A stretch of DNA of 64,000 bases from Streptomyces milbemycinicus (GTDB taxonomy: Bacteria > Actinomycetota > Actinomycetes > Streptomycetales > Streptomycetaceae). The stretch spans positions 1 to 64,000 of the forward strand of contig NZ_MUNE01000318.1 in assembly GCF_002154605.1 (NCBI RefSeq), given 5' to 3'. Below the pieces are notes generated by a model that did not search any database, had not been told where the DNA came from, and saw only the letters and a list, made by a program, of their open reading frames with translations. The position numbers and the translations under genes are program-made. Positions 114 to 12,304 of this stretch are shown here, piece after piece. Numbering within the stretch: the first letter of the stretch is position 1; each line of letters begins with the position of its first letter.

Positions 114-133
114 AGCTCGTGGAGAGGCGGAGC

Positions 134-3100
134 ATGCGACTGAGACGCCCCAGCCCCAGACCATGGCACGCACCCCGACGAACGGCCGCCCTGGTGGCGG
201 CCGTTGTGCTGACGCTGACGGCCCAGGGCGCGGCGGCCGCCGCCGCGCAGGCCGATCCCGCCGCCGCGTCCGCCAAGTCGTCCTCCAAATCATCCTTCGC
301 GTCGTCCTTCGAATCGAACGACCCGCAACCCGACTGGCGCGACACGGTCGAGACCGGCCCCGACGGCGGGAAGAAGGCCTCCGGGGTCGACGGCGACTAC
401 AGCAGCGGTATCCCCGGCAATGTCACCGACAAGGTCAGCGCGGTCCGGGCCAACGGGGAGAACACCGGGGGCGGCGAGGTGAAGGAGAACGTCGCCGACG
501 GCGACACCAGCACCAAGTGGCTGGTCTTCGAGAAGACCGCCTGGCTGGAGTTCGACCTCTGCGACCCGGCCAAGGCCGTCCGCTACGCCCTCACCTCCGC
601 CAACGACGCCCCCGGCCGCGACCCCGCCGACTGGACCCTCAAGGGCTCCGCCGACGGCTCCGACTGGAAGACCCTCGACACCCGCGAGAACCAGTCCTTC
701 GCCTCGCGCCACCAGACCCGCGAGTTCAGCTTCGACAACGAGACGGCGTACCGGCACTACCGGCTGGAGATCACCCGCAACGCCGGCGACGACATCGTGC
801 AACTCGCCGAGCTGCAGCTCGCGACCGCCGACACCACCCCGCCCGCCGCCGCCGATATGCGCACCCACATCGACTGCGGCGGCGCCGTCGGCTCCCCCAC
901 CGCCAAGGCGAAAGCCGGCTTCACCGGCACCCGCGCCCTGCTGTACGCGGGCACCCACAAGCCGGACGGCCGGGCGTACTCGTACAACAAGATCTTCGAC
1001 GTGAACACGGCCGTCACCCGCGACACCCTGTTCTCGTACCGGATCTTCCCCTCGATGCCGGAGACCGACCTCAACTATCCGGCCACCCACGTCTCCGTCG
1101 ACCTCGCCTTCACCGACGGCACCTACCTGAGCGATTTGCCCGGCGCCGTCGACCAGCACGGCGCCCGGCTGAGTCCCCAGGGCCAGGCCGCCTCCAAGAC
1201 GCTGTACGTCAACCAGTGGAACCACAAGGAGTCGCGCATCGGCGCGGTCGCGGCGGGCAAGACGATCGACCGCGTCCTGGTCGCGTACGACTCCCCCAAG
1301 GGCGCGGCGAAGTTCCGCGGCTGGGTCGACGACATCTCCATCGCCCCCAAGGCCCCCGAGAAGCGCCTCAAGCACCTCTCCGACTACGCGGTCACCACCC
1401 GCGGCACCAACTCCAGCGGCAGCTTCTCCCGCGGCAACAACTTCCCGGCCACCGCCGTCCCGAACGGCTTCAACTTCTGGACCCCGGTGACCAACGCGGG
1501 CACGGACAGCTGGCTGTACGAGTACGCCCGTGCCAACAACGCCGACAACCTCCCCACCGTCCAGGCCTTCAGCGCGAGCCATGAGCCGAGCCCCTGGATG
1601 GGTGACCGGCAGACGTTCCAGGTCATGCCCTCGATCGCGTCCGACGTACCCGACGCCGGGCGCACCGCCCGCGCCCTCCCCTTCCGCCACACCAACGAGA
1701 CCGCCCGGCCGCACTACTACGGCGTGACCTTCGAGAACGGCCTCAAGACGGAGATAGCCCCCACCGACCACGCCGCGATCATGCGCTTCACCTACCCCGG
1801 CAACGATGCGAGTGTCATCTTCGACAACGTCACCGGGGACGGCGGGCTGACGCTGGACGCCGAGCACGGCGTCGTCAGCGGCTACTCCGACGTCAAGAGC
1901 GGCGGGAGCACGGGAGCGGGCCGCATGTTCGTGTACGGAGTCTTCGACGCACCCGTCAGCGCGGGCGGCAAGCTGTCCGGCGGGGCCGGGAAAGACGTCA
2001 CCGGCTACTTCCGCTTCAAGCCCGGCGCGGACCGTACGGTCACGCTCCGGATCGCCACCTCCCTGATAAGCCTCGACCAGGCGAAGACGAACCTGGACCG
2101 CGAAATCCCGGCATCGGCTTCGTTCACGCAGGTCAAGGAGGTTGCGCAGACCGCCTGGGACGACATCCTGGGGAGGATCGAGGTCGAGGGCGCGACCCGC
2201 GACCAGCTCACCACCCTCTACTCCAGCCTCTACCGGCTGTACCTGTATCCCAATTCCGGTTTCGAGAACACGGGAACCGTAGGGAAGCCCCGATACCAAT
2301 ACGCCAGCGCGTTCTCCAAGCCGGCCGGCGAGAACACCCCGACCCACACCGGCGCCAAGATCGTCGAAGGCCAGGTCTACGTCAACAACGGCTTCTGGGA
2401 CACCTACCGCACCACCTGGCCCGCGTACTCCCTGCTGACCCCGGCCCGGGCCGGGAAGATGGTCGACGGCTTCGTCCAGCAGTACAAGGACGGCGGCTGG
2501 ATCTCCCGCTGGTCCTCCCCCGGCTACTCCGACCTGATGACCGGCACCAGTTCCGACGTCGCCTTCGCCGACGCCTACCTCAAGGGCGTCCACTTCGACG
2601 CCGAGGCCGCGTACGAGGCCGCCCTGAAGAACGCCACCACCGTCCCGCCCTCGTCGGGCGTCGGCCGCAAGGGCATGGACACGTCCATCTTCCTCGGCTA
2701 CACCACGACCAAGACCCACGAGGGCCTGTCCTGGGCGCTGGAGGGCTACCTCAACGACTTCGGCCTCGCGAAGATGGGCAAGGCGCTCTACGAGAAGACC
2801 AAGAAGGCCCGCTACAAGGAGGAGTCCGAGTACTTCCTGCGCCGCGCCCAGAACTACGTCAAGCTCTTCGACGACAAGGCGGGCTTCTTCCAGGGCAAGG
2901 ACGCGGACGGGCAGTGGCGCGTCGACTCCGACAAGTACGACCCCCGGGTCTGGGGCTACGACTACACCGAGACCAACGGCTGGGGCTACGCCTTCACCGC
3001 CCCCCAGGACAGCCGGGGCCTCGCCAACCTCTACGGCGGGCGTTCCGGCCTCGCGAAGAAGCTCGACACCTACTTCTCCACCCCGGAAACCGCCTCCCCC

Positions 3101-4018
3101 GACCTCGCCGGCTCCTACGGCGGCGTCATCCACGAGATGACCGAGGCCCGTGACGTCCGCATGGGCATGTACGGCCACAGCAACCAGGTCGCCCACCACG
3201 CGACATACATGTACGACGCGGCCGGCCAACCCTGGAAGACCCAGGAAAAGGTCCGCGAAGTCCTCTCCCGCCTCTACCTCGGCAGCGAAATCGGCCAGGG
3301 CTACCACGGCGACGAGGACAATGGCGAGCAGTCCGCGTGGTACGTCTTCAGCGCCCTGGGGTTCTATCCGCTGGTCATGGGCGGCTCCGAGTACGCGGTG
3401 GGCTCCCCCTTGTTCACCAAGGCCACGGTGCACCTGGAGAACGGCCGCGACCTGGTCATCAAGGCCCCGAAGAACAGCGCCCGGAATGTCTACATCCAGG
3501 GGTTGAGGGTGAACGGCAAGCCGTGGAACTCGACCGCTCTGCCGCATGACGTGCTCGCGCGGGGCGGGACGCTGGACTTCGACATGGGCGTTAGGCCCAC
3601 CAAGTGGGGCACCGGGAAGGGCGCAGCGCCTATATCGATTACGACGGACGACAAGGTCCCGACGCCGCGCCACGATGTGACGGTGCCGCCGAGTGGAGGT
3701 TCGGCGCTGCTGGACGACACATCGGGGACGGAGGCGTCGTTCGAGTCCGTTGACCTTCCGGTGGCTGAGGCCTCGCGGGTGGTGCAGTACACGCTGACGT
3801 CGCCCGGGGATCGGTCGAAGGCCCCGTCGGGGTGGGTGCTGCAGGGTTCCGACGACGGCGAGAAGTGGACGGATGTGGACCTGCGCTCGGGCGAGTCCTT
3901 CACGTGGGACAAGCAGACGCGGGTCTTCTCGGTCAGCTCGCCGGGGTCGTATGAGCGGTACCGGCTGGTGCCGGACGGCGGCAAGGCGACGCTGGCGGAG
4001 GTGGAGCTGCTGGCGTAG
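134..4018 (+). CDS. Secreted GH92 alpha-mannosidase with F5/8 C-type domains
   Basis: Predicted exo-alpha-mannosidase of family GH92, exported to trim mannose from glycans. ATG 134 is preferred over GTG 119 because GGAGAGGCGG (121-130) sits just before it. The N terminus has an Arg-rich head, a hydrophobic core and an AQA-type cleavage region, so it is a Sec signal peptide. A discoidin-like (F5/8 C) domain covers about residues 110-230 and a second lies in the last 110 residues. The catalytic part (about 440-1150) shows NNGFWDTYRTTWPAY, DGGWISRWSSPGYSD and GDEDNGEQSAWYVFSALGFYP, all typical of GH92. It is monocistronic, with an operator before it and a terminator after it. Length (about 1,294 aa) fits multidomain Streptomyces members. 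Linkage preference cannot be read from the sequence. Confidence 0.92.
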   Translation: MRLRRPSPRPWHAPRRTAALVAAVVLTLTAQGAAAAAAQADPAAASAKSSSKSSFASSFESNDPQPDWRDTVETGPDGGKKASGVDGDYSSGIPGNVTDKVSAVRANGENTGGGEVKENVADGDTSTKWLVFEKTAWLEFDLCDPAKAVRYALTSANDAPGRDPADWTLKGSADGSDWKTLDTRENQSFASRHQTREFSFDNETAYRHYRLEITRNAGDDIVQLAELQLATADTTPPAAADMRTHIDCGGAVGSPTAKAKAGFTGTRALLYAGTHKPDGRAYSYNKIFDVNTAVTRDTLFSYRIFPSMPETDLNYPATHVSVDLAFTDGTYLSDLPGAVDQHGARLSPQGQAASKTLYVNQWNHKESRIGAVAAGKTIDRVLVAYDSPKGAAKFRGWVDDISIAPKAPEKRLKHLSDYAVTTRGTNSSGSFSRGNNFPATAVPNGFNFWTPVTNAGTDSWLYEYARANNADNLPTVQAFSASHEPSPWMGDRQTFQVMPSIASDVPDAGRTARALPFRHTNETARPHYYGVTFENGLKTEIAPTDHAAIMRFTYPGNDASVIFDNVTGDGGLTLDAEHGVVSGYSDVKSGGSTGAGRMFVYGVFDAPVSAGGKLSGGAGKDVTGYFRFKPGADRTVTLRIATSLISLDQAKTNLDREIPASASFTQVKEVAQTAWDDILGRIEVEGATRDQLTTLYSSLYRLYLYPNSGFENTGTVGKPRYQYASAFSKPAGENTPTHTGAKIVEGQVYVNNGFWDTYRTTWPAYSLLTPARAGKMVDGFVQQYKDGGWISRWSSPGYSDLMTGTSSDVAFADAYLKGVHFDAEAAYEAALKNATTVPPSSGVGRKGMDTSIFLGYTTTKTHEGLSWALEGYLNDFGLAKMGKALYEKTKKARYKEESEYFLRRAQNYVKLFDDKAGFFQGKDADGQWRVDSDKYDPRVWGYDYTETNGWGYAFTAPQDSRGLANLYGGRSGLAKKLDTYFSTPETASPDLAGSYGGVIHEMTEARDVRMGMYGHSNQVAHHATYMYDAAGQPWKTQEKVREVLSRLYLGSEIGQGYHGDEDNGEQSAWYVFSALGFYPLVMGGSEYAVGSPLFTKATVHLENGRDLVIKAPKNSARNVYIQGLRVNGKPWNSTALPHDVLARGGTLDFDMGVRPTKWGTGKGAAPISITTDDKVPTPRHDVTVPPSGGSALLDDTSGTEASFESVDLPVAEASRVVQYTLTSPGDRSKAPSGWVLQGSDDGEKWTDVDLRSGESFTWDKQTRVFSVSSPGSYERYRLVPDGGKATLAEVELLA

Positions 4019-4508: not shown

Positions 4509-4530
4509 CCTCTTGTGAGTGACCAAGAGG
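4509..4530. promoter_or_regulatory. Inverted repeat before the XRE regulator
   Basis: CCTCTTG and CAAGAGG form a 7-bp inverted repeat with an 8-base spacer, 28 bases upstream of ATG 4558. It overlaps the possible upstream GTG start (4519), which favours the later start and suggests an autoregulatory operator. No footprint-like evidence beyond symmetry and position. Confidence 0.35.
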
Positions 4531-4557
4531 CCCATGAGCGGGCAAGAAAGAAGGACC

Positions 4558-5418
4558 ATGCCGCCCAGCAACCCTCCAACCGTGCGACGACAGCGCCTGG
4601 GCGCGGAGCTGCGGAAGCTCCGCGAGCGCGCCGGGATGTCAGCGGCAGCAGCGGCAGGCCTCCTGGGCAGCAACCAGACCCAGATCAGCAACATCGAGGC
4701 GGGACGGCATGGGGTGAGCGCGGACCGGGTGCGGACACTGGCCTGCAACTACTCGTGCACGGACGAAGCGCTCATCGAGGCGCTGGTCGGCATGACAGGA
4801 GAGCGCGGACGCCAGTGGTGGGAGGAGTACCGAGGGATCCTGCCCGCCGGGCTACTCGACCTGGCTGAACTCGGCCACCACGCACTCGCCTTGCGCGTCT
4901 CGCCCGCCATCCACATTCCCGGCCTGCTCCAGACACCGGAACACGCCCGAGAGGTCTTCCGCCAGGTCGTCCCAGCCCTCCCACCACACGAGGTAGAGCA
5001 TCGAGTGTCGCTCCGCACCAAACGACAAGAGGTCCTGCACCGGGACGGCCCAACACCACTCACCGCAGTCATCCACGAAGCCGCCTTGCGCATGAAGTTC
5101 GGCGGACCGGAGATCACGCGGATGCAGCTGCAGCATCTTTTGGAGATGAGCGAGCGGGACCACATCACGATCCGAGTCATCCCCTTCGACGCAGGAGTCC
5201 TTCCAGGCGCCGGGCAGGCCGTCTTCTACGCTGTTGGCCCCGCCCCACAACTGGATACAGTCCAATTGGACCAGTCACACGGTCCCGTATTCATCGACGC
5301 GGAAGCGCAGCTTCAGAAGTACCGGGCACTCTTGGACCGGCTGGAAGAGGTGTCTCTCAAGCAAGAAGAGTCACGTGGTTTTATCCACAACATCGTGCGA
5401 AGCCTCAGAAAGGCATAG
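4558..5418 (+). CDS. XRE-family regulator with DUF5753 (WhiJ-like)
   Basis: DNA-binding protein with an N-terminal helix-turn-helix: RRQRLGAELRKLRERAGM, then AAGLLGSNQTQISNIEAGRHG as the recognition part. The rest (about residues 90-280) is the ligand-sensing DUF5753 domain, with its usual IPGLLQTPEHARE and LRTKRQEVL segments. ATG 4558 is chosen because an upstream GTG (4519) sits inside an inverted repeat; with GTG the protein gains 13 residues. The next gene, a DUF397 protein, starts three bases after the stop. Such pairs are the WhiJ-type modules of Streptomyces, many of which affect development or antibiotic production. The target is unknown. Confidence 0.9.
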   Translation: MPPSNPPTVRRQRLGAELRKLRERAGMSAAAAAGLLGSNQTQISNIEAGRHGVSADRVRTLACNYSCTDEALIEALVGMTGERGRQWWEEYRGILPAGLLDLAELGHHALALRVSPAIHIPGLLQTPEHAREVFRQVVPALPPHEVEHRVSLRTKRQEVLHRDGPTPLTAVIHEAALRMKFGGPEITRMQLQHLLEMSERDHITIRVIPFDAGVLPGAGQAVFYAVGPAPQLDTVQLDQSHGPVFIDAEAQLQKYRALLDRLEEVSLKQEESRGFIHNIVRSLRKA

Positions 5419-5421
5419 AAG

Positions 5422-5688
5422 TTGCAGACCATCACCTGGCGAACATCGTCCTACTGCGGAGAAGGAGAGAGCTGCGTGAACGTCGCACGAATCGCCGCCG
5501 ATTGGCAGAAGTCCTCCTACAGCCAAGAGGGCTCCAACTGCCTCAACGTCGCCGCCCCCACCCCCGACATCATCAAACTACGCGAGAGCGACGACCCCGA
5601 CATCATCCTCACCGCCACCCCCGCCGCCCTCGGCGTCTTCATACGCGCCGCCAAGGCAGGCCAGTTCGACCACCTCACCGGTCACTAG
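5422..5688 (+). CDS. DUF397 protein with a duplicated N-terminal half
   Basis: Small acidic partner of the preceding XRE regulator. The start is TTG 5422, with AAAGG upstream inside the regulator's last codons, so translation is likely coupled. The usual DUF397 opening (W-x-x-S-S-Y ... C-x-N-V-A) occurs twice: WRTSSYCGEGESCVNVA, then WQKSSYSQEGSNCLNVA. It is followed by the single usual tail RESDDPDIILTATPAALGVF and KAGQFDHL. The family normally has one copy (about 60-70 aa); this one is 88 aa. The last 100 bases recur in damaged form at 6626-6723. Confidence 0.88.
   Translation: MQTITWRTSSYCGEGESCVNVARIAADWQKSSYSQEGSNCLNVAAPTPDIIKLRESDDPDIILTATPAALGVFIRAAKAGQFDHLTGH
5581..5680 (+). repeat. 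Direct repeat, copy 1 (intact DUF397 3' end)
   Basis: This 100-base stretch encodes the intact DUF397 tail and is about 85% identical by eye to 6626-6723. The two copies are in direct orientation and bracket about 0.95 kb of AT-richer DNA whose genes lie on the other strand. This is the layout left by insertion into, or unequal exchange between, tandem DUF397 genes. Confidence 0.75.
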
Positions 5689-5742: not shown

Positions 5743-6123
5743 TCAGGAGAAGAGCATGGGAACACTCTGCTGCACGCAGACCTCAAGGACCGTTACGAGA
5801 GCCTTGGCGTCATCAAGAAGATCTTCATCAAGATCACCAAATTCGACATCGGACCAATTCGCCACGATCTCCTTGAGCCTCGGAAGCACTTGTGTACATT
5901 CAACTACCGAGAGCTGACCTCGGTCATGCGGATGATCGAGAAACGGCCTGAGCGGGCTTGCGAACTCGCTCCACGATCGGCCGCCCCCAAAGCCCTGCAT
6001 GGCCTCAAGGTCGATGCCCACAGCCGCCGCAAGCTCCCTTCGAAACATATCGAAATCTGAGTACGACCAACTAGACTCAACATGGCCTGCGTTACCGCTG
6101 TCCGGATAGAGGGTCAATCCCAT
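5743..6123 (-). CDS. Hypothetical 126-aa acidic protein, possible immunity protein
   Basis: Soluble, acidic, aromatic-rich protein (MGLTLYPDSGNAGH... then SSWSYSDFDMFRREL) with no recognised domain. Its ATG shares one base with the stop codon of the broken upstream reading frame (TAATG), so the two were once a translationally coupled operon. Base composition is clearly less GC-rich than the surroundings. Size, acidity and location behind an RHS toxin locus would suit an immunity protein, but the toxin gene is 1.5 kb away with a regulator between them. That role is only a guess. Confidence 0.65.
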   Translation of the reverse strand: MGLTLYPDSGNAGHVESSWSYSDFDMFRRELAAAVGIDLEAMQGFGGGRSWSEFASPLRPFLDHPHDRGQLSVVECTQVLPRLKEIVANWSDVEFGDLDEDLLDDAKALVTVLEVCVQQSVPMLFS

Positions 6124-6599: not shown

Positions 6600-6727
6600 A
6601 GGAGCTGGCATCCAAGGCAACAATGCGCGAGAGCAACGAGCCCGACGTTATCCTCACCGCCACCCCCGCTCCTCGACGCCTTCATACGCACCGCCAAGGC
6701 CAGCCGATTCGCCCACCTCACCACGAC
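6600..6727 (+). pseudogene. DUF397 3'-end remnant (direct repeat, copy 2)
   Basis: Reads MRESNEPDVILTATPA and then, after a two-base deletion relative to copy 1, LLDAFIRTAKASRFAHLTT in another frame. This is the C-terminal half of a DUF397 protein, without its start and frameshifted. Bases 6626-6723 match 5581-5680. It marks the right edge of the inserted island. Confidence 0.75.
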
Positions 6728-6734
6728 GACAGCC

Positions 6735-7496
6735 TCATCCATGCTGATCACTGCCCCAGGAACGGGCCGCTTCGCTCATCTGCCGCACCTGGTCACCCGT
6801 CAGCCGTCGTACATCCCACAGGAGTTCTGCCAGGCCAACCAGTGCCGGCTCAGGCTTTCCGGTGGGAAGCTTGATGCCGGTCAAAGCAGCCAGGTCGTTT
6901 GCCGGGATTCCCAGTACCGTCCCGAATCCGGCCAGCAGCTCGGGAGTCAGCTCCTTACGGCCGTGTCCAACCGCCCCGATCGTGGACGCTGAGAGATAGA
7001 GGTCGGTCATCACGAGCAGCACCTTCGCCGACGCCGTCCAGTCGAGGTTCCGATTGCCGAGCAGGCGCACGAGAAGCGCCCCGAAGCTCGGGTCGTACTG
7101 CTGGTACGCCGGAAGCGTCGGAGCTGGATGCTCGCGTGCTTCATCCGGCAGCGACTGAGCAAGCCGGCGCAATCGCAGTCTGTGCTCGGGCGACAGAGCC
7201 GCCGCATGTGAGACGAGTTGGGGGATCCATGCCCTGGCTCCCGGGTCCAGGGGAAACAGGTCGTCTGGCAGCGGTACCTCTGCGATCTGGAAGAGGTCTG
7301 CCGTGTGCAGGCCGAGTGCGGGTGCGAGCCGACGCAGCAGTGTCGGGCTCGGCACCCCTCCTTCAGCGACCGCTAGCAACTCGGGTTCGGGAAGCTGGGC
7401 GCGCTGCGACAGGGTCTGCAGGTTTAGCCTCCGGCTCTCCATCAGCCCCGCCAATAGCACAGCGAAACCAGGCAGCCCGCTCTCGGTCGAACTCAC
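6735..7496 (-). CDS. HTH (XRE-like) transcriptional regulator
   Basis: A 253-aa protein with an N-terminal Cro/C1-like fold: GFAVLLAGLMESRRLNLQTL, SQRAQLPEPELLAVAEGG and LLRRLAPALGLHTADLF. A longer helical C-terminal part has LSASTIGAVGHGRKELTPEL and GIPANDLAALTGI, which resembles a second degenerate HTH repeat. The start is GTG 7496 behind GAAGGA. It lies 107 bases downstream of the RHS toxin on the same strand, where an immunity gene is usually expected, and has no resemblance to known immunity families. Function as a DNA-binding regulator is inferred from the fold only. Confidence 0.7.
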   Translation of the reverse strand: MSSTESGLPGFAVLLAGLMESRRLNLQTLSQRAQLPEPELLAVAEGGVPSPTLLRRLAPALGLHTADLFQIAEVPLPDDLFPLDPGARAWIPQLVSHAAALSPEHRLRLRRLAQSLPDEAREHPAPTLPAYQQYDPSFGALLVRLLGNRNLDWTASAKVLLVMTDLYLSASTIGAVGHGRKELTPELLAGFGTVLGIPANDLAALTGIKLPTGKPEPALVGLAELLWDVRRLTGDQVRQMSEAARSWGSDQHG

Positions 7497-7603: not shown

Positions 7604-10600
7604 TCACCTATAGGAAGGAGGGATCCAAGGATCCCAGGCATCTGGAGCTGGTTCCAGTCTGTGTCGCGCGAAGGCTGCGCGTGCGATGTCCTCCAAAGAC
7701 TTGGACCCCGGCAACTGAGCGGGCTGGTAATGACCTGAGAAATTGTCGAACCTGTTGATCACACCGTCGGCGTTGACATCGAATGTGCCGGCCATGAGAA
7801 CGGGCTGTCTCTCTCCCAAGCTTGTATGCCCGGCATCTGGTGCGAGCCTCCACATGTCGTCGTCGTACATCGCGCGCAGCGAACCGTCTAGTTTGACCAC
7901 ATAGTGGTGTCCGCCTGGTTTAAGGGCTTCTCCAGGCTTGATCCCCGCGTCTGCGGGAAGTGCACCCTGCGGTGAGTCGTCCACGCCCGGACGACCGGGA
8001 TGCCACACCTCGGATGACCCACCTCCACACCCCTCCTTGACACCACTGAGCCCCAGTGGGTCTACCCATCCAGTCGGGTTGTGGACGTAAGTGGTGGGGT
8101 TGGGTGCTGGGGTGAGTCCGAGGGGGTCGGGGGTGAGGTAGCGGGCGGTGGTGGGGTCGTAGTAGCGGTGGTGGTTGTAGTGGAGGCCGGTTTCCGGGTC
8201 GTAGTACTGGCCGGGGAAGCGGAGGGGCGTGTAGGTGGTGCTGTCTGCGGTCCAGGTGGTGGTGCCCCAGAGAGTGGCGCGGGTGCGCCAGGCGATGTCG
8301 CCCGTCTCCTCTACGAGTTCAGTAGGTGTACCGACGAGGTCGGTGACGATGGCGAAGAACCGCCGGTCAATCTCCTGCTGGGTAGTTACATCAGTGATGC
8401 GCTCGGTCTGCGCGAGGGGGTGGAGACCTCGATGATCCCAGGTGAGAGTGACCGGGTGGGGCAAGCCGGGTGTGGTGGTGGTCTGTTCGACGAGGGTTGC
8501 GCCTTCCCACGTGAAGTCCACCTGCTCGGCGACCGCGCCGTCGTCCGCTAAGCGTTGTTTGGCGGTGCGGCGGCCGAAGGGGTCGTAGAGGTAGCGCCAC
8601 ACCGCGCCATCGGGGGTGGTGACGGCGGTGAGGCGGTCTTCGGCGTCCCAGGCGTAGCGCCAGGTGTCGGGCTTCTTCGACAAGCGGGTCTTCTGACGGA
8701 GGGTAAGTCGACCCGCATCGTCGTGTTCATAGCGGATGTTGCCCGCGCGGGTGATCCGCGTGCCGACGTAGGCGCGAGTGCCTGTTGAATCCTGTGCGGG
8801 GTGGGCTGCGGGCCAGCTCGCGTGAGTCTGGTTGCCCGCTTCGTCATAGGCATACCTCTCGGTCCAGCCCTGCGCTCGGACCGTGGTAACGCGGCCTGCT
8901 GTGTCGAGATCGAAGGCGCGGCGGCCAGTGAGATGGTCATCGATCGTGGTGACATAGCCGTCGGCGCGGTAGGTGTACGCCCGGTGGCGAACAGGGTCGG
9001 GCGTGGGGCCGGTAAGTGTTTGCTCGGTAAGGCGACCCAAGGGGTCCCAAGTGTGGGTGAGGGTGAGTGCCTCGCCTATGTGGCGGGTGGTTTCGCGGCC
9101 CGCGGCGTCGTGGTCGAAGGCGACGGTGTGGCCGGAGGCCGTCAGGGTGGTGCGGTTGCCAGCAGCGTCGTAGGTGTAGGTGGTGGTGGCGCCAGTGGGG
9201 GTAGTGCGGCGGGTACGGCGGCCTAAGGCGTCGTAGGCGTGGGTCAGGACCCGGCCGTTCACCATCTCGGATTTGACCCGCCCCAGCCGGTCGCGCTGGT
9301 AAATCACCTCCGCCTCCGGGCTGGTGGCCTGGAGTAGGCGGCCTGCCGGGTCGTACGTGTAGCGGGTGACGCGGTCGTCCGCGGCTTTGCTGGCGATGCG
9401 GCCCGTTGCGTCGCGCTCGTAGTGGATCGTCTGGCCGAGCGGGTTGGTGTGAGTCGTGAGGCGGCCTGCCGCGTCGTGGGTGTAGGTGAGGGTGCGGTCG
9501 TCGAAGTCCGTTTCGGCGACCAGGCGTCCCGCTGGGTCGTAGTCGTACGACCAGGACAGGCCCTGGGGGTTGGTGACCTGCGTCAGGCGTAGGTGAGCGT
9601 CATGCGTGAATTCGTAGCGCACGCCGTCAGGGTTGGTGCGCGCGGCCAGCAGGTCGAAGTGGGTGTACTCGTACGAGGTCACCCGGCCCGCCGCGTCGAC
9701 GCTCTTCGTGCAGTTGCCCTCGCCGTCGTACGTCCAGGTTTCCATTGTCCCGTCCGGGTTGGTCCGGGCGACGAGCTTGCCCTCCACCGTCCACCGCAGG
9801 TGCGTGGTGTGGCCCAGGGGGTCGGTGAGGATCACAGGGCGGCCGAAGGCGTCGCGCTGGTAGCGGGTGGTGGCGCCCGGCGGATCCATGATCTCGACTG
9901 GCAGGCCCGCCGCGTCACAACGCACACCTGTGGTCTGACCCAGCGCGTCAGTGATGGCGATCAAGTGACCCCGGTCGTCATAGGCGTACCGGGTGGCGTG
10001 GCCGGTCGGGTCCGTGACACTGGTGTGGTGGCCTGCTTCGTCGTACGCCTGGTTCCAGGTGACGCCGTCCGGGCCGGTAACGGAAGTCGGCAGACCCAGG
10101 GCGTTGTACGTGGCGGTGGACTCGTGGCCGTCCGGACCTGTGATCTTTGTGAGGTTTCCGGCCTCGTCGTAGGTGTAGGCGGTGGTGTGGCCCAGCGGGT
10201 CGGTGTGGGTCAGCGGGCGGTCGTGGCGGTCGTACGTGGCGCGGGTGGTGTGGCCGAGGGGGTTGGTCTCGGCAACCAGCTGGTACGCGTCGTTGAACAG
10301 GTAGCGGGTGGCATGGCCGTCAACCGTCGTGACGGTCGTGATCCGGTGGCCTGTGCCCTGGTCGATGCGGTCGTAGTCGAGACGCAGCGCTATGTGGCCC
10401 GCTTCCCCACCTTGGGCGATGCAGCGATCACGGTTGTCGTAGACGTAGTCGTAACGGCGCTCGTTGGTGTCGGTCCAGGAGATCACCCGGGACTCGTCGT
10501 CGTACTCGAACCTCAGGGGCAGCCCGCTGGAGTTGACGACCTCGGTGAGGTTGCCGTCGGCGTAGCCGTAGCGGATCAGTTCCTGGTCGGTGCCGTCGGC

Positions 10601-12304
10601 GGCTGCGCCTGCCAGGTGGAGGGCTGTGATCCGGCCGTCCTGAGTCGTCAGCTTCAGGTGGTAGCCGGCGGAGTGGACGATTGCGGTCGGTGTGCCGCCG
10701 GAGTCGTATTCGAAGGTGATGAAGTTGCCGGAGCGGTCCGATATCTGCTCCAGCCGCGCCGTCCCGTCGCCTCCGTCGCTCGGGCCGGTGAAGTGGCGGG
10801 TGTGGCCGCCGGCCGGGTCGGTGACGGTGTAGTCGCCGTGCTCGTTCCGGTCGAGCGGCCAGCGGGGACCTGTCTCGGGGAGCGTGGACAGGTCGGGTGC
10901 GGGGTGCGGATAGGACAGCAGCAGGCCGTCCTCGCTGACGAAAACGACGCCTTCGGCGTCGATCTCCAAGCGCTGGTCGACGGTGCTTGACCACGAGGAC
11001 CCGAACCAGCGGCCCTCGGTGTAGCCGGATTCCACACGGCGGGTGAACACCAGCGGCAGCGCACCGGGCAGGGTCACATCCGTCTGCGGCAGGAACATCT
11101 TTCCCGTCGCCAGGTCGATGGGGTCCGTGCCGCCGGAACATTTCTTTTTGCGCGCGAAGGCTTTCTTCCCCCAATTGCGCAGCGAGTCGCGGACCCTGCC
11201 CCGCGGCCGCGCATATTTGCCCGCCGTGATCCCCTTGCGCGCCGCACCGATCCCCTTGGCCCCCAGCACTTCGCCGAAAACCCTGCCGGTGCCCTCGGCA
11301 GGGTCCTTGGCGAACCCGTCCAGCATCTGCTTGCCCGCGCCGTACGGGTCGCTGGCCACATTCACCAGGCCCGCCGCCGTGTTGTTCAAACCGGTCGCGT
11401 ACTCGGCCGGGTGCGTGATGTTGTACGGGTCCAGCGGGTTAACGCTGCGCGCGAAGCCGACAACGCTGGCACCGCCCTTGATCACACCCGCCGTGAAGTG
11501 CGTGGCGTCCAGCTTCAAGCCGGTCAGGCCGTCCTCCGCCTGCTCGAAGTACGACGGCTTGGGCGGCGCCGCGTCCCGCGCCGCCTTGACCGCCGTACGG
11601 GCCGTATCAGCCGCCTCGTTGCGCTGGCGGCGGGCCTCGTCCAGCTTCTGCTGCGCGAGTTTGGCCTTGCCCGGGCCCGGGTCGTGGAACTTCCCCGGCT
11701 TGCAGGCGTCCTTGCCGTCCTCGACAGCCGCGTTGTACGCCACGACCTGCTCGTTGTAAGCCGACACCGCGTCCTTCGACGCCTTCTTCGCCGCCTTGTA
11801 GTCGTCGATGGCCTCCTGCGCCTGGAGCTGCGCCCACTCCACCGTGCCCGCGAACGTCTCCATCGCGAGCGCGGCCTTCTCACACGCGTCGGCGGCCTTG
11901 AACCACTTCTTCGGCTCGACCGCCACCTCCTCGCGGAACGCGTCCGCCGCCTTGCCCTTCCAGTGCGCCGAGTCCAGCCGCTTCAGACCGTCCCCGACGT
12001 CGTTGAACGCCTTCTTGAAATCCCGCAGATGGCCCGCCGTCGAGCGGATCTTGCCCGCACTGCCGTAGATCAGCTTCTTCGGGTCCTCGGTCTCGTCCAG
12101 CCGCATCTCGGCGACATCCGCGCCCAGTTCGTTCGCCACCGAGCGGGACTTGTCACGGACCCAGTCCGCCCCGTCCTCCAAGCCCACCTTGTCCAGGCCG
12201 TCGGCGACCTTGTTGCCGCCCCACTCGATGCCGTCCCCGATGACCTCGGTGCCCTTTTCGACCGCGTCATCGATGAAGTCCGGCGTCAGGTCGAGTCCGC
12301 CCAT
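7604..12304 (-). CDS. RHS-repeat polymorphic toxin with T7SS-type N terminus
   Basis: A 1,566-aa antibacterial toxin carrier. Residues 1-260 are a helical WXG100/LXG-like region (AHWKGKAADAFREEV) that suits type VII-like export. The DUF6531 entry motif, GGTDPIDLATGKMFLPQTDV, follows near 395. About 25 YD/RHS repeats of the YTYDAAGNRT kind form the shell up to about 1,360. The RHS core ends at YDPETGLHYNHHRYYDP ... YLTPDPLGL and NPTGWVDPLGL. The exchangeable tip is residues 1420-1566, with GGHHYVVKLDGSLRAMYDD and DGVINRFDNFSGHYQP. I do not know its activity; the His-rich start and SGHYQP resemble other RHS/LXG toxin tips. The tip DNA (7604-8044) looks less GC-rich than the repeats, as expected for swapped tips. 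The ATG overlaps the stop of the upstream partner by one base. Confidence 0.93.
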   Translation of the reverse strand: MGGLDLTPDFIDDAVEKGTEVIGDGIEWGGNKVADGLDKVGLEDGADWVRDKSRSVANELGADVAEMRLDETEDPKKLIYGSAGKIRSTAGHLRDFKKAFNDVGDGLKRLDSAHWKGKAADAFREEVAVEPKKWFKAADACEKAALAMETFAGTVEWAQLQAQEAIDDYKAAKKASKDAVSAYNEQVVAYNAAVEDGKDACKPGKFHDPGPGKAKLAQQKLDEARRQRNEAADTARTAVKAARDAAPPKPSYFEQAEDGLTGLKLDATHFTAGVIKGGASVVGFARSVNPLDPYNITHPAEYATGLNNTAAGLVNVASDPYGAGKQMLDGFAKDPAEGTGRVFGEVLGAKGIGAARKGITAGKYARPRGRVRDSLRNWGKKAFARKKKCSGGTDPIDLATGKMFLPQTDVTLPGALPLVFTRRVESGYTEGRWFGSSWSSTVDQRLEIDAEGVVFVSEDGLLLSYPHPAPDLSTLPETGPRWPLDRNEHGDYTVTDPAGGHTRHFTGPSDGGDGTARLEQISDRSGNFITFEYDSGGTPTAIVHSAGYHLKLTTQDGRITALHLAGAAADGTDQELIRYGYADGNLTEVVNSSGLPLRFEYDDESRVISWTDTNERRYDYVYDNRDRCIAQGGEAGHIALRLDYDRIDQGTGHRITTVTTVDGHATRYLFNDAYQLVAETNPLGHTTRATYDRHDRPLTHTDPLGHTTAYTYDEAGNLTKITGPDGHESTATYNALGLPTSVTGPDGVTWNQAYDEAGHHTSVTDPTGHATRYAYDDRGHLIAITDALGQTTGVRCDAAGLPVEIMDPPGATTRYQRDAFGRPVILTDPLGHTTHLRWTVEGKLVARTNPDGTMETWTYDGEGNCTKSVDAAGRVTSYEYTHFDLLAARTNPDGVRYEFTHDAHLRLTQVTNPQGLSWSYDYDPAGRLVAETDFDDRTLTYTHDAAGRLTTHTNPLGQTIHYERDATGRIASKAADDRVTRYTYDPAGRLLQATSPEAEVIYQRDRLGRVKSEMVNGRVLTHAYDALGRRTRRTTPTGATTTYTYDAAGNRTTLTASGHTVAFDHDAAGRETTRHIGEALTLTHTWDPLGRLTEQTLTGPTPDPVRHRAYTYRADGYVTTIDDHLTGRRAFDLDTAGRVTTVRAQGWTERYAYDEAGNQTHASWPAAHPAQDSTGTRAYVGTRITRAGNIRYEHDDAGRLTLRQKTRLSKKPDTWRYAWDAEDRLTAVTTPDGAVWRYLYDPFGRRTAKQRLADDGAVAEQVDFTWEGATLVEQTTTTPGLPHPVTLTWDHRGLHPLAQTERITDVTTQQEIDRRFFAIVTDLVGTPTELVEETGDIAWRTRATLWGTTTWTADSTTYTPLRFPGQYYDPETGLHYNHHRYYDPTTARYLTPDPLGLTPAPNPTTYVHNPTGWVDPLGLSGVKEGCGGGSSEVWHPGRPGVDDSPQGALPADAGIKPGEALKPGGHHYVVKLDGSLRAMYDDDMWRLAPDAGHTSLGERQPVLMAGTFDVNADGVINRFDNFSGHYQPAQLPGSKSLEDIARAAFARHRLEPAPDAWDPWIPPSYR

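What the first reader, a model, noticed from the sequence alone, without database searches (positions are those of the whole stretch)
7604..8044. RHS toxin tip with no immunity gene next to it
The 147-aa tip after DPLGL has a His-rich start and an SGHYQP motif, and its DNA is less GC-rich than the repeats. Immunity genes normally follow directly, but here a HTH regulator follows, and then a broken gene and an acidic 126-aa protein. The immunity function may be in one of these, or the broken gene may be the old immunity.
Basis: partly seen in the sequence, partly recalled or inferred. Interest (0 to 1): 0.5.

Follow-up and report, generated by a model that had tools for sequence, protein, structure and literature searches.

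The report
Toxin tip with repressor-like immunity partner
A large secreted Streptomyces protein ends in an unnamed toxin-like tip, and the gene right behind it, which looks like a DNA-binding repressor, travels with that tip between genomes and is probably the missing antidote rather than an ordinary regulator.

Summary
The tip is real: the 146 C-terminal residues of a 1566-aa T7SS-signal/RHS protein. The claim that no immunity gene lies next to it is probably wrong. The adjacent "HTH regulator" (6735-7496, minus) has homologues beside 13 of 16 distinct close tip relatives, in five actinobacterial genera, although carriers and gene orientation differ. Tip and HTH divergence correlate (r 0.93 over 13 loci, 0 of 20,000 permutations). 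In six Hint-carried loci tip and HTH agree (r 0.94) while tip and Hint do not (r 0.00). That is how a cognate immunity gene behaves. The HTH protein is predicted to have a lambda-repressor (XRE) fold, in two-domain (same strand) or one-domain (convergent) versions.

Against: solo HTH copies occur in 8 of 60 other genomes, 3 of 16 tip loci lack it, and XRE proteins usually bind DNA. The two other candidates fail: the broken gene is a frameshifted DUF397 remnant, and the acidic 126-aa gene shows no link to the tip.

The tip belongs to an unnamed family (invariant H73, S103, G104, H105 in 31 of 31 aligned), also on LXG and RHS carriers in other phyla. Its activity is unknown; a small His-dependent enzyme is my guess. 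Toxicity and neutralisation are untested.

The parts
7604..8044 (-). C-terminal tip, 146 aa plus stop; an unnamed toxin-type domain ('SGHY' domain, my label)
   Evidence: translation; relatives at the C-termini of other large secreted-type proteins; no Pfam, NCBIfam, PHROGs or PADLOC match; AF2 model pLDDT 78.8, pTM 0.76
8045..12304 (-). carrier part of the same ORF: T7SS secretion-signal domain, DUF6531, RHS repeats, RHS-associated core ending ...RYLTPDPLGL...VDPLGLS
   Evidence: Pfam PF21725 E 2e-97, PF05593 19 stretches, PF20148; NCBIfam TIGR03696 E 1.5e-22
6735..7496 (-). XRE/HTH-fold protein, 253 aa, GTG start, 107 bp after the tip; proposed cognate immunity protein
   Evidence: homologue beside 13 of 16 distinct close tip relatives; mirror-tree; AF2 pLDDT 87.6, pTM 0.85, XRE fold Z up to 11.8; only copy found in the genome
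12304..13050 (-). small ORF directly upstream of the RHS gene, possibly an export partner (inference only)
   Evidence: position; no Pfam match above cut-off

Best explanation
The tip is the toxin module of a polymorphic (RHS) toxin that is probably exported by a type VII system. The neighbouring XRE/HTH-fold protein is its cognate immunity protein. Steps: (1) the RHS shell carries the 146-aa tip, and the tip is released in a rival cell (inferred from the domain layout); (2) the tip acts as a small alpha/beta enzyme using its invariant His73 and Ser103-Gly-His105 (inferred from conservation); (3) sister cells are protected because the XRE-fold protein binds the tip directly. The one-domain version would act as a dimer and the two-domain version as a built-in pair (inferred). 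Shown here: tip and HTH gene are inherited together as a cassette that is found on different carrier proteins.
For: Carrier architecture; three EccC places over cut-off in the genome. HTH homologue beside the tip in 13 of 16 distinct close relatives, on RHS, Hint and other carriers: 5 same-strand (window included) and 6 convergent, plus L045 and L060. Tip against HTH r 0.93, n 13, 0 of 20,000 permutations. In six Hint-carried loci tip-HTH r 0.94 and tip-Hint r -0.003. This genome has 6 RHS-core places but one HTH copy. Of 10 distinct genus loci with the more distant tip clade, 0 have the HTH; each has another same-strand 111-181-aa ORF in that place. Solo copy L066 is 79-81% identical to the tip-linked HTHs of L023, L024 and L045 and nests among them, as an orphan immunity gene would. 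The 13 HTH proteins have pI 5.2-6.8; the Pfam HTH match is below cut-off in W and absent in L023.
Against: 8 of 60 other genomes carry a homologue with no tip nearby, so the family also exists alone; at this rate solo copies are commoner in the genus than close tips. 3 of 16 close tip loci lack it: L006 (complete tip, no HTH match anywhere in that genome), L022 (a 74-aa weakly IF2_N-like ORF follows) and L009 (truncated tip). XRE folds usually bind DNA (one search lists repressors as well as HigA antitoxins), and L028 passes the Pfam HTH_31 cut-off. 12 of 15 loci folded show a long hairpin just past the tip (my reading), so tip and HTH are often separate transcripts. By identity W's HTH is closest to a solo copy (L061, 50%), not to a tip-linked one (L008, 42%). 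The permutation test does not remove shared ancestry. No interaction or toxicity data; a complex could not be modelled.
Confidence: 0.68

Rival explanations
1. The HTH protein is a transcription regulator dedicated to this toxin cassette (for example silencing or inducing it), and immunity is elsewhere, is not needed, or is provided by target specificity.
For: XRE fold predicted with Z 9-12 to known DNA-binding repressors; HTH_31 over the Pfam cut-off in L028; solo copies exist.
Against: It tracks the tip, not the carrier. In six loci it is convergent, at the 3' end, far from the carrier's promoter. In L023, L024 and L025 the first domain aligns without most of the HTH core.
Confidence: 0.18
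2. Both: an antitoxin-like protein that neutralises the tip by binding it and also represses its own or the toxin's promoter, as HigA-type antitoxins do. (This overlaps the best explanation, so the odds do not add to 1.)
For: XRE fold with HigA and GraA antitoxins among the top structure matches; tight cassette behaviour.
Against: The toxin candidate is the end of a giant protein rather than a small operon toxin; often separate transcription units; HTH core lost in L023, L024 and L025.
Confidence: 0.25
3. The pairing has nothing to do with immunity: the HTH gene is only a hitch-hiker beside a common insertion point used for tip exchange.
For: Solo copies in unrelated places.
Against: Adjacency in 13 of 16 loci with different orientations and carriers, and correlated divergence.
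Confidence: 0.07
4. The acidic 126-aa gene or the broken gene is, or was, the immunity gene.
For: Position downstream and acidity.
Against: Acidic gene: homologues in 10 of 61 genomes, a second copy (65% identical) in this genome, none at E <= 1e-3 in the loci searched with it, L001-L031. Broken gene: DUF397 remnant on the other strand.
Confidence: 0.05

Closest known systems
Polymorphic toxin systems with RHS carriers (Zhang et al. 2012, PMC3482391; passages by term search only)
   Same: N-terminal trafficking domain, RHS repeats and core, exchangeable C-terminal tip, small tip-specific gene next door
   Different: tip matches no curated family searched; the neighbour has an XRE fold. In the part of that paper that is held, 'HTH' was found twice, in one passage, as a toxin fold
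HigA/GraA-type XRE antitoxins of type II toxin-antitoxin pairs
   Same: XRE fold by structure comparison; proposed neutralisation of a partner enzyme
   Different: partner here is the end of a 1566-aa polymorphic toxin; one- or two-domain forms; often convergent with the toxin
HTH_31 / XRE regulators of Streptomyces (Pfam PF13560)
   Same: first domain superposes on lambda-repressor-like domains
   Different: W scores 12.6 bits against a cut-off of 27; tandem duplication; pI below 7; linkage to a toxin tip
Two unrelated immunity proteins for one toxin: Tde5 with Tdi5a and Tdi5b (PMC13392607; outline with abstract and start of introduction seen)
   Same: different immunity proteins serving one toxin family
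   Different: there both act on one toxin; here the two types belong to different clades of tips

Membership tests
Polymorphic toxin system (RHS type) | N-terminal secretion/trafficking domain | tested here: met
   PF21725 T7SS_signal, E 2.2e-97
Polymorphic toxin system (RHS type) | RHS repeats and RHS-associated core before the tip | tested here: met
   PF05593 19 stretches, TIGR03696
Polymorphic toxin system (RHS type) | C-terminal domain exchangeable between carriers | tested here: met
   same tip on RHS, Hint and other carriers (PT-HINT by Pfam in L006 and L027; others by their Hint-type ends)
Polymorphic toxin system (RHS type) | adjacent small gene that tracks the tip | tested here: met
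   XRE/HTH gene beside 13 of 16; r 0.93
Polymorphic toxin system (RHS type) | tip is toxic and the neighbour neutralises it | not testable with these tools
   needs expression experiments
A named toxin family (Pfam, NCBIfam, PHROGs, PADLOC) | profile match of the window's tip | tested here: not met
   no match; some relatives have only sub-cut-off Pfam matches such as LVIVD, 18.5 against 20.2 bits
Phosphohistidine phosphatase (PHPT1) fold | fold similarity of the tip | tested here: inconclusive
   best Z 4.5, rmsd 3.1, 80 aligned; under the level the tool calls meaningful
XRE / lambda-repressor-like proteins | five-helix HTH fold | tested here: met
   model residues 7-76 against 9a7f Z 11.8 and 8-72 against 6rnz Z 9.5; 2cro Z 9.3. 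Caveat: the tool warns that helical models can reach Z 13 by arrangement alone; sequence support comes from HTH_31 in L028
XRE / lambda-repressor-like proteins | curated Pfam HTH cut-off | tested here: inconclusive
   W 12.6 against 27 bits; L008 23.5 against 27; L028 29.8 against 27; L023 none
XRE / lambda-repressor-like proteins | binds operator DNA | not testable with these tools
   none
HigA-type type II antitoxin | small toxin gene in one operon | tested here: not met
   the toxin candidate is the end of a 1566-aa ORF; convergent in six loci

The most novel reading that the evidence does not exclude
An unnamed, phylum-crossing toxin family (SGHY domain with invariant His/Ser/His) whose actinobacterial branch is neutralised by a repurposed XRE repressor that may still act on DNA: a delivered polymorphic toxin using a type II antitoxin-like protein as immunity, with one-domain (dimer) and tandem two-domain (built-in pair) versions.
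Probability: 0.3. Interest if true: 0.68.

Novelty: new variant of a known kind. Interest (0 to 1): 0.5.

Why it matters
If the XRE-fold neighbour is the immunity protein, some 'immunity-less' toxin genes are not immunity-less, and the line between polymorphic-toxin immunity proteins and type II antitoxins becomes thinner. The tip also gives a simple signature (GH...V..AG...N.SGHY.P) for a toxin-type family for which I found no curated profile, on RHS, LXG and Hint carriers and behind WXG100 genes.

Tried and rejected
Known toxin family for the tip: no hits for the window's tip in Pfam, NCBIfam, PHROGs or PADLOC; best PDB sequence match E 0.07. PDB fold search: 0 matches at E <= 0.001, and VIA best Z 4.5 (PHPT1), too weak to use. 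The viral library gave one match at E 6.6e-4, an unnamed 351-aa protein (G8DGH9), not followed. An ADP-ribosyltransferase idea was dropped because the Glu of 'AGE' is not conserved in the close clade.

Broken gene as old immunity: rejected, DUF397 remnant. Acidic gene as immunity: rejected. HTH as a common Streptomyces housekeeping regulator: rejected, 1 copy in this genome and 9 of 61 genomes in all. Solo HTHs as partners of diverged tips: no tip profile match at E <= 1 in 8 of 8 regions of 16 kb and no RHS, YD or Hint signatures (simple text patterns only).

The genus and phylum profile searches scored at most 10 first-look candidates per genome, so their counts are lower bounds.

Literature: no paper of the library holds 'SGHY' with 'toxin'; none holds 'immunity gene', 'helix-turn-helix', 'Rhs' and 'Streptomyces' together. 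In the listings (20 of 33 shown; 20 of 61 shown; 5; 4) I saw, by title and the printed start of the abstract, no XRE immunity protein for a polymorphic toxin. I opened only PMC3482391 (term searches) and PMC13392607 (outline with abstract and start of introduction). That is not proof of absence.

Full report
What is in the window. ORF 7604-12304 (minus, 1566 aa) has a T7SS secretion-signal domain (PF21725, E 2e-97), DUF6531, RHS repeats and an RHS-associated core. The last 146 residues after ...DPLGLS form the tip. It is lower in G+C (60.3% against 67.7%; third positions 62% against 87%), as an exchanged module would be. It matches no Pfam, NCBIfam, PHROGs or PADLOC family. Three EccC places above the curated cut-off show that the genome has T7SS-type machinery. 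The export route is inferred from the signal domain only. That the genome is a Streptomyces is inferred: genomes of its genus include contigs that are those of named Streptomyces records (L005 lies inside L025 and L007 inside L031).

Relatives of the tip. In 295 genomes of the genus 18 match at E <= 0.01, own genome included, several of them weak chance hits in unrelated frames. A profile search of 392 genomes of the genus gives 17 at E <= 1e-5, own included, and of 396 genomes of the phylum 2, own included; both scored at most 10 candidates per genome. One genome-contig scan gave 10 loci in Catenulispora, Streptomyces, Saccharothrix, Micromonospora, Paractinoplanes and Amycolatopsis, and the plasmid collection gave one more. 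Removing duplicates (for example L005, L025 and L044 are one locus) leaves 16 distinct close relatives, window included: W, L006, L008, L009, L022-L031 (ten), L045 and L060. L009 has a truncated tip. A more distant clade in the genus has 10 distinct loci (L010, L011, L013, L017, L018, L050, L053, L054, L057, L059). Still more distant members sit on an RHS protein (Janthinobacterium), an LXG protein (Listeria innocua), a protein behind WXG100 genes (Nocardia) and a hypothetical protein (Fibrella). In the first three a small gene of unknown function follows directly; in Fibrella none is annotated. In an alignment of 31 sequences (15 close, 10 genus-distant, 6 others; L009 left out) tip positions G44, H73, V82, A85, G86, S103, G104 and H105 are identical in 31 of 31, N101 and P108 in 30 and Y106 in 29. 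I take H73 and S103-H105 as the likely active site; that is inference.

The neighbour. Directly behind the tip, 107 bp away on the same strand, lies the 253-aa HTH ORF. Searching the ORFs of the fetched loci with it (L001-L031), and later with a profile of the tip-linked members (L001-L060), finds a homologue directly behind the tip in 13 of 16 distinct close loci. In W, L008, L023, L024, L025, L045 and L060 it is a 230-278-aa protein on the same strand. In L026-L031 it is a 118-127-aa one-domain protein on the opposite strand, its stop codon 57-124 bp from that of the tip gene. The 13 come from five genera (Streptomyces, Saccharothrix, Micromonospora, Paractinoplanes, Amycolatopsis). The exceptions are L006 (no HTH match anywhere in that genome), L022 (a 74-aa ORF weakly like IF2_N, below cut-off) and L009 (truncated tip; none in the 16-kb region, or by the window's HTH in that genome). 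Carriers differ: T7SS/RHS without Hint (W), Hint-type (L026-L031, L060, by their ends), YD-rich (L071, the wider region of L008) and one without any Pfam match (L023).

Cassette test. Pairwise identities of tip and HTH over 13 loci correlate with r 0.93, and 0 of 20,000 permutations reach it. Within the two-domain group r is 0.94 (11 of 5040 permutations reach it) and within the one-domain group 0.88 (10 of 720). Shared ancestry can produce this, so the Hint part of the carrier was used as a control. In six Hint-carried loci (15 pairs) tip-HTH r is 0.94 and tip-Hint r is -0.003; for the five convergent ones alone the values are 0.88 and 0.36. L030 was left out because its carrier frame is short. 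Tip and HTH therefore move together while the carrier is exchanged, which a carrier-bound regulator would not do. The control is small.

Rarity and solo copies. The own genome has one HTH copy but six RHS-core places, some partial or at contig ends. Of 60 other genomes 8 hold a homologue at E <= 1e-6. None of the eight has a tip nearby: no tip match at E <= 0.01 within 1.5 kb and none at E <= 1 in 16-kb regions. At least four look like intact two-domain genes and two (L067, L068) look degraded. L066 is 79-81% identical to the tip-linked HTHs of L023, L024 and L045 and nests among them, as an orphan immunity gene would. The other five solo copies in the tree form their own group (support 0.84). 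The unrooted tree sets W and L008 apart from the rest with weak support (0.71), and by identity W is closest to the solo copy L061 (50%). The solo copies are therefore the main evidence against a purely tip-bound role.

Structure. The tip model (pLDDT 78.8, pTM 0.76) is a small alpha/beta domain without a usable PDB match. The HTH model (pLDDT 87.6, pTM 0.85; the other four models 65-74) has two helical domains in tandem. Its first domain superposes on XRE domains such as DdrO and 434 Cro (Z 9.3-9.5, about 2 Angstrom), and HigA antitoxins are also listed (Z up to 9.8, with larger rmsd); Foldseek alone gave no E <= 0.001. The tool warns that helical models can reach such Z by arrangement alone; the HTH_31 match of L028 (29.8 against 27 bits) supports it by sequence. 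A profile of the one-domain proteins aligns with the second domain of the two-domain ones (hhalign probability 95.5, E 1.5e-8), which supports a tandem duplication. In L023, L024 and L025 the first domain aligns without most of the HTH core.

Other candidates. The broken gene is a frameshifted DUF397 copy on the plus strand (tblastn with the intact DUF397 neighbour at 5422-5688, E 3e-7). It fits the HTH_31/DUF5753-DUF397 pair next to it, not an immunity gene. The acidic 126-aa ORF has homologues in 10 of 61 genomes and a second copy in this genome, and none at E <= 1e-3 in the loci searched with it, L001-L031.

Transcription. By my reading, 12 of 15 loci folded have a long hairpin just past the tip (not W and L022; imperfect in L008), so tip and HTH are often separate units. 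Separate expression suits an immunity gene that must be on before the toxin, but it suits a plain neighbour equally well.

Verdict. The tip is a toxin-type domain of an unnamed family, and its HTH neighbour is most likely its immunity protein (0.68). Shown: conservation, adjacency, cassette behaviour, predicted folds. Inferred: toxicity, enzymatic nature, binding, delivery. What the fold can do on DNA is open.

Noticed in passing
window 6623-6722 (+): Frameshifted remnant of a DUF397 gene close to the intact HTH_31/DUF5753 (4519-5418) and DUF397 (5422-5688) pair.
   Followed up: yes
window 5743-6123 (-): Acidic 126-aa ORF without Pfam match; homologues in 10 of 61 genomes, including a second copy in this genome.
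   Followed up: partly
L010, L011, L013, L017, L018, L050, L053, L054, L057, L059: The more distant tip clade is followed by same-strand 111-181-aa ORFs; the two tested have no Pfam match above cut-off. Several share a 'YEAMLDAFSDSWRDRDL'-like end by eye: a second candidate immunity family.
   Followed up: partly
L022:4441-6708: In Catenulispora the tip ends a 658-aa protein that by eye has a membrane segment near its start, and is followed by a 74-aa IF2_N-like ORF.
   Followed up: partly
L042, L043: In one 2.2-Mb genome of the same phylum two proteins without a Pfam match carry the SGHY domain; L042 has tandem 'NQPLYEDLRHVVGEG' repeats before it.
   Followed up: no
tip model against the viral structure library: One match at E 6.6e-4 (G8DGH9, 351 aa, no name) and weaker ones, among them a Pandoravirus and a phage RadC-like protein, hint that the fold also occurs in viruses.
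   Followed up: no
window 119-4018 (+): 1299-aa ORF beside the toxin locus is a glycosyl hydrolase family 92 protein with an F5/8 type C domain (Pfam PF07971 E 2.7e-144).
   Followed up: partly
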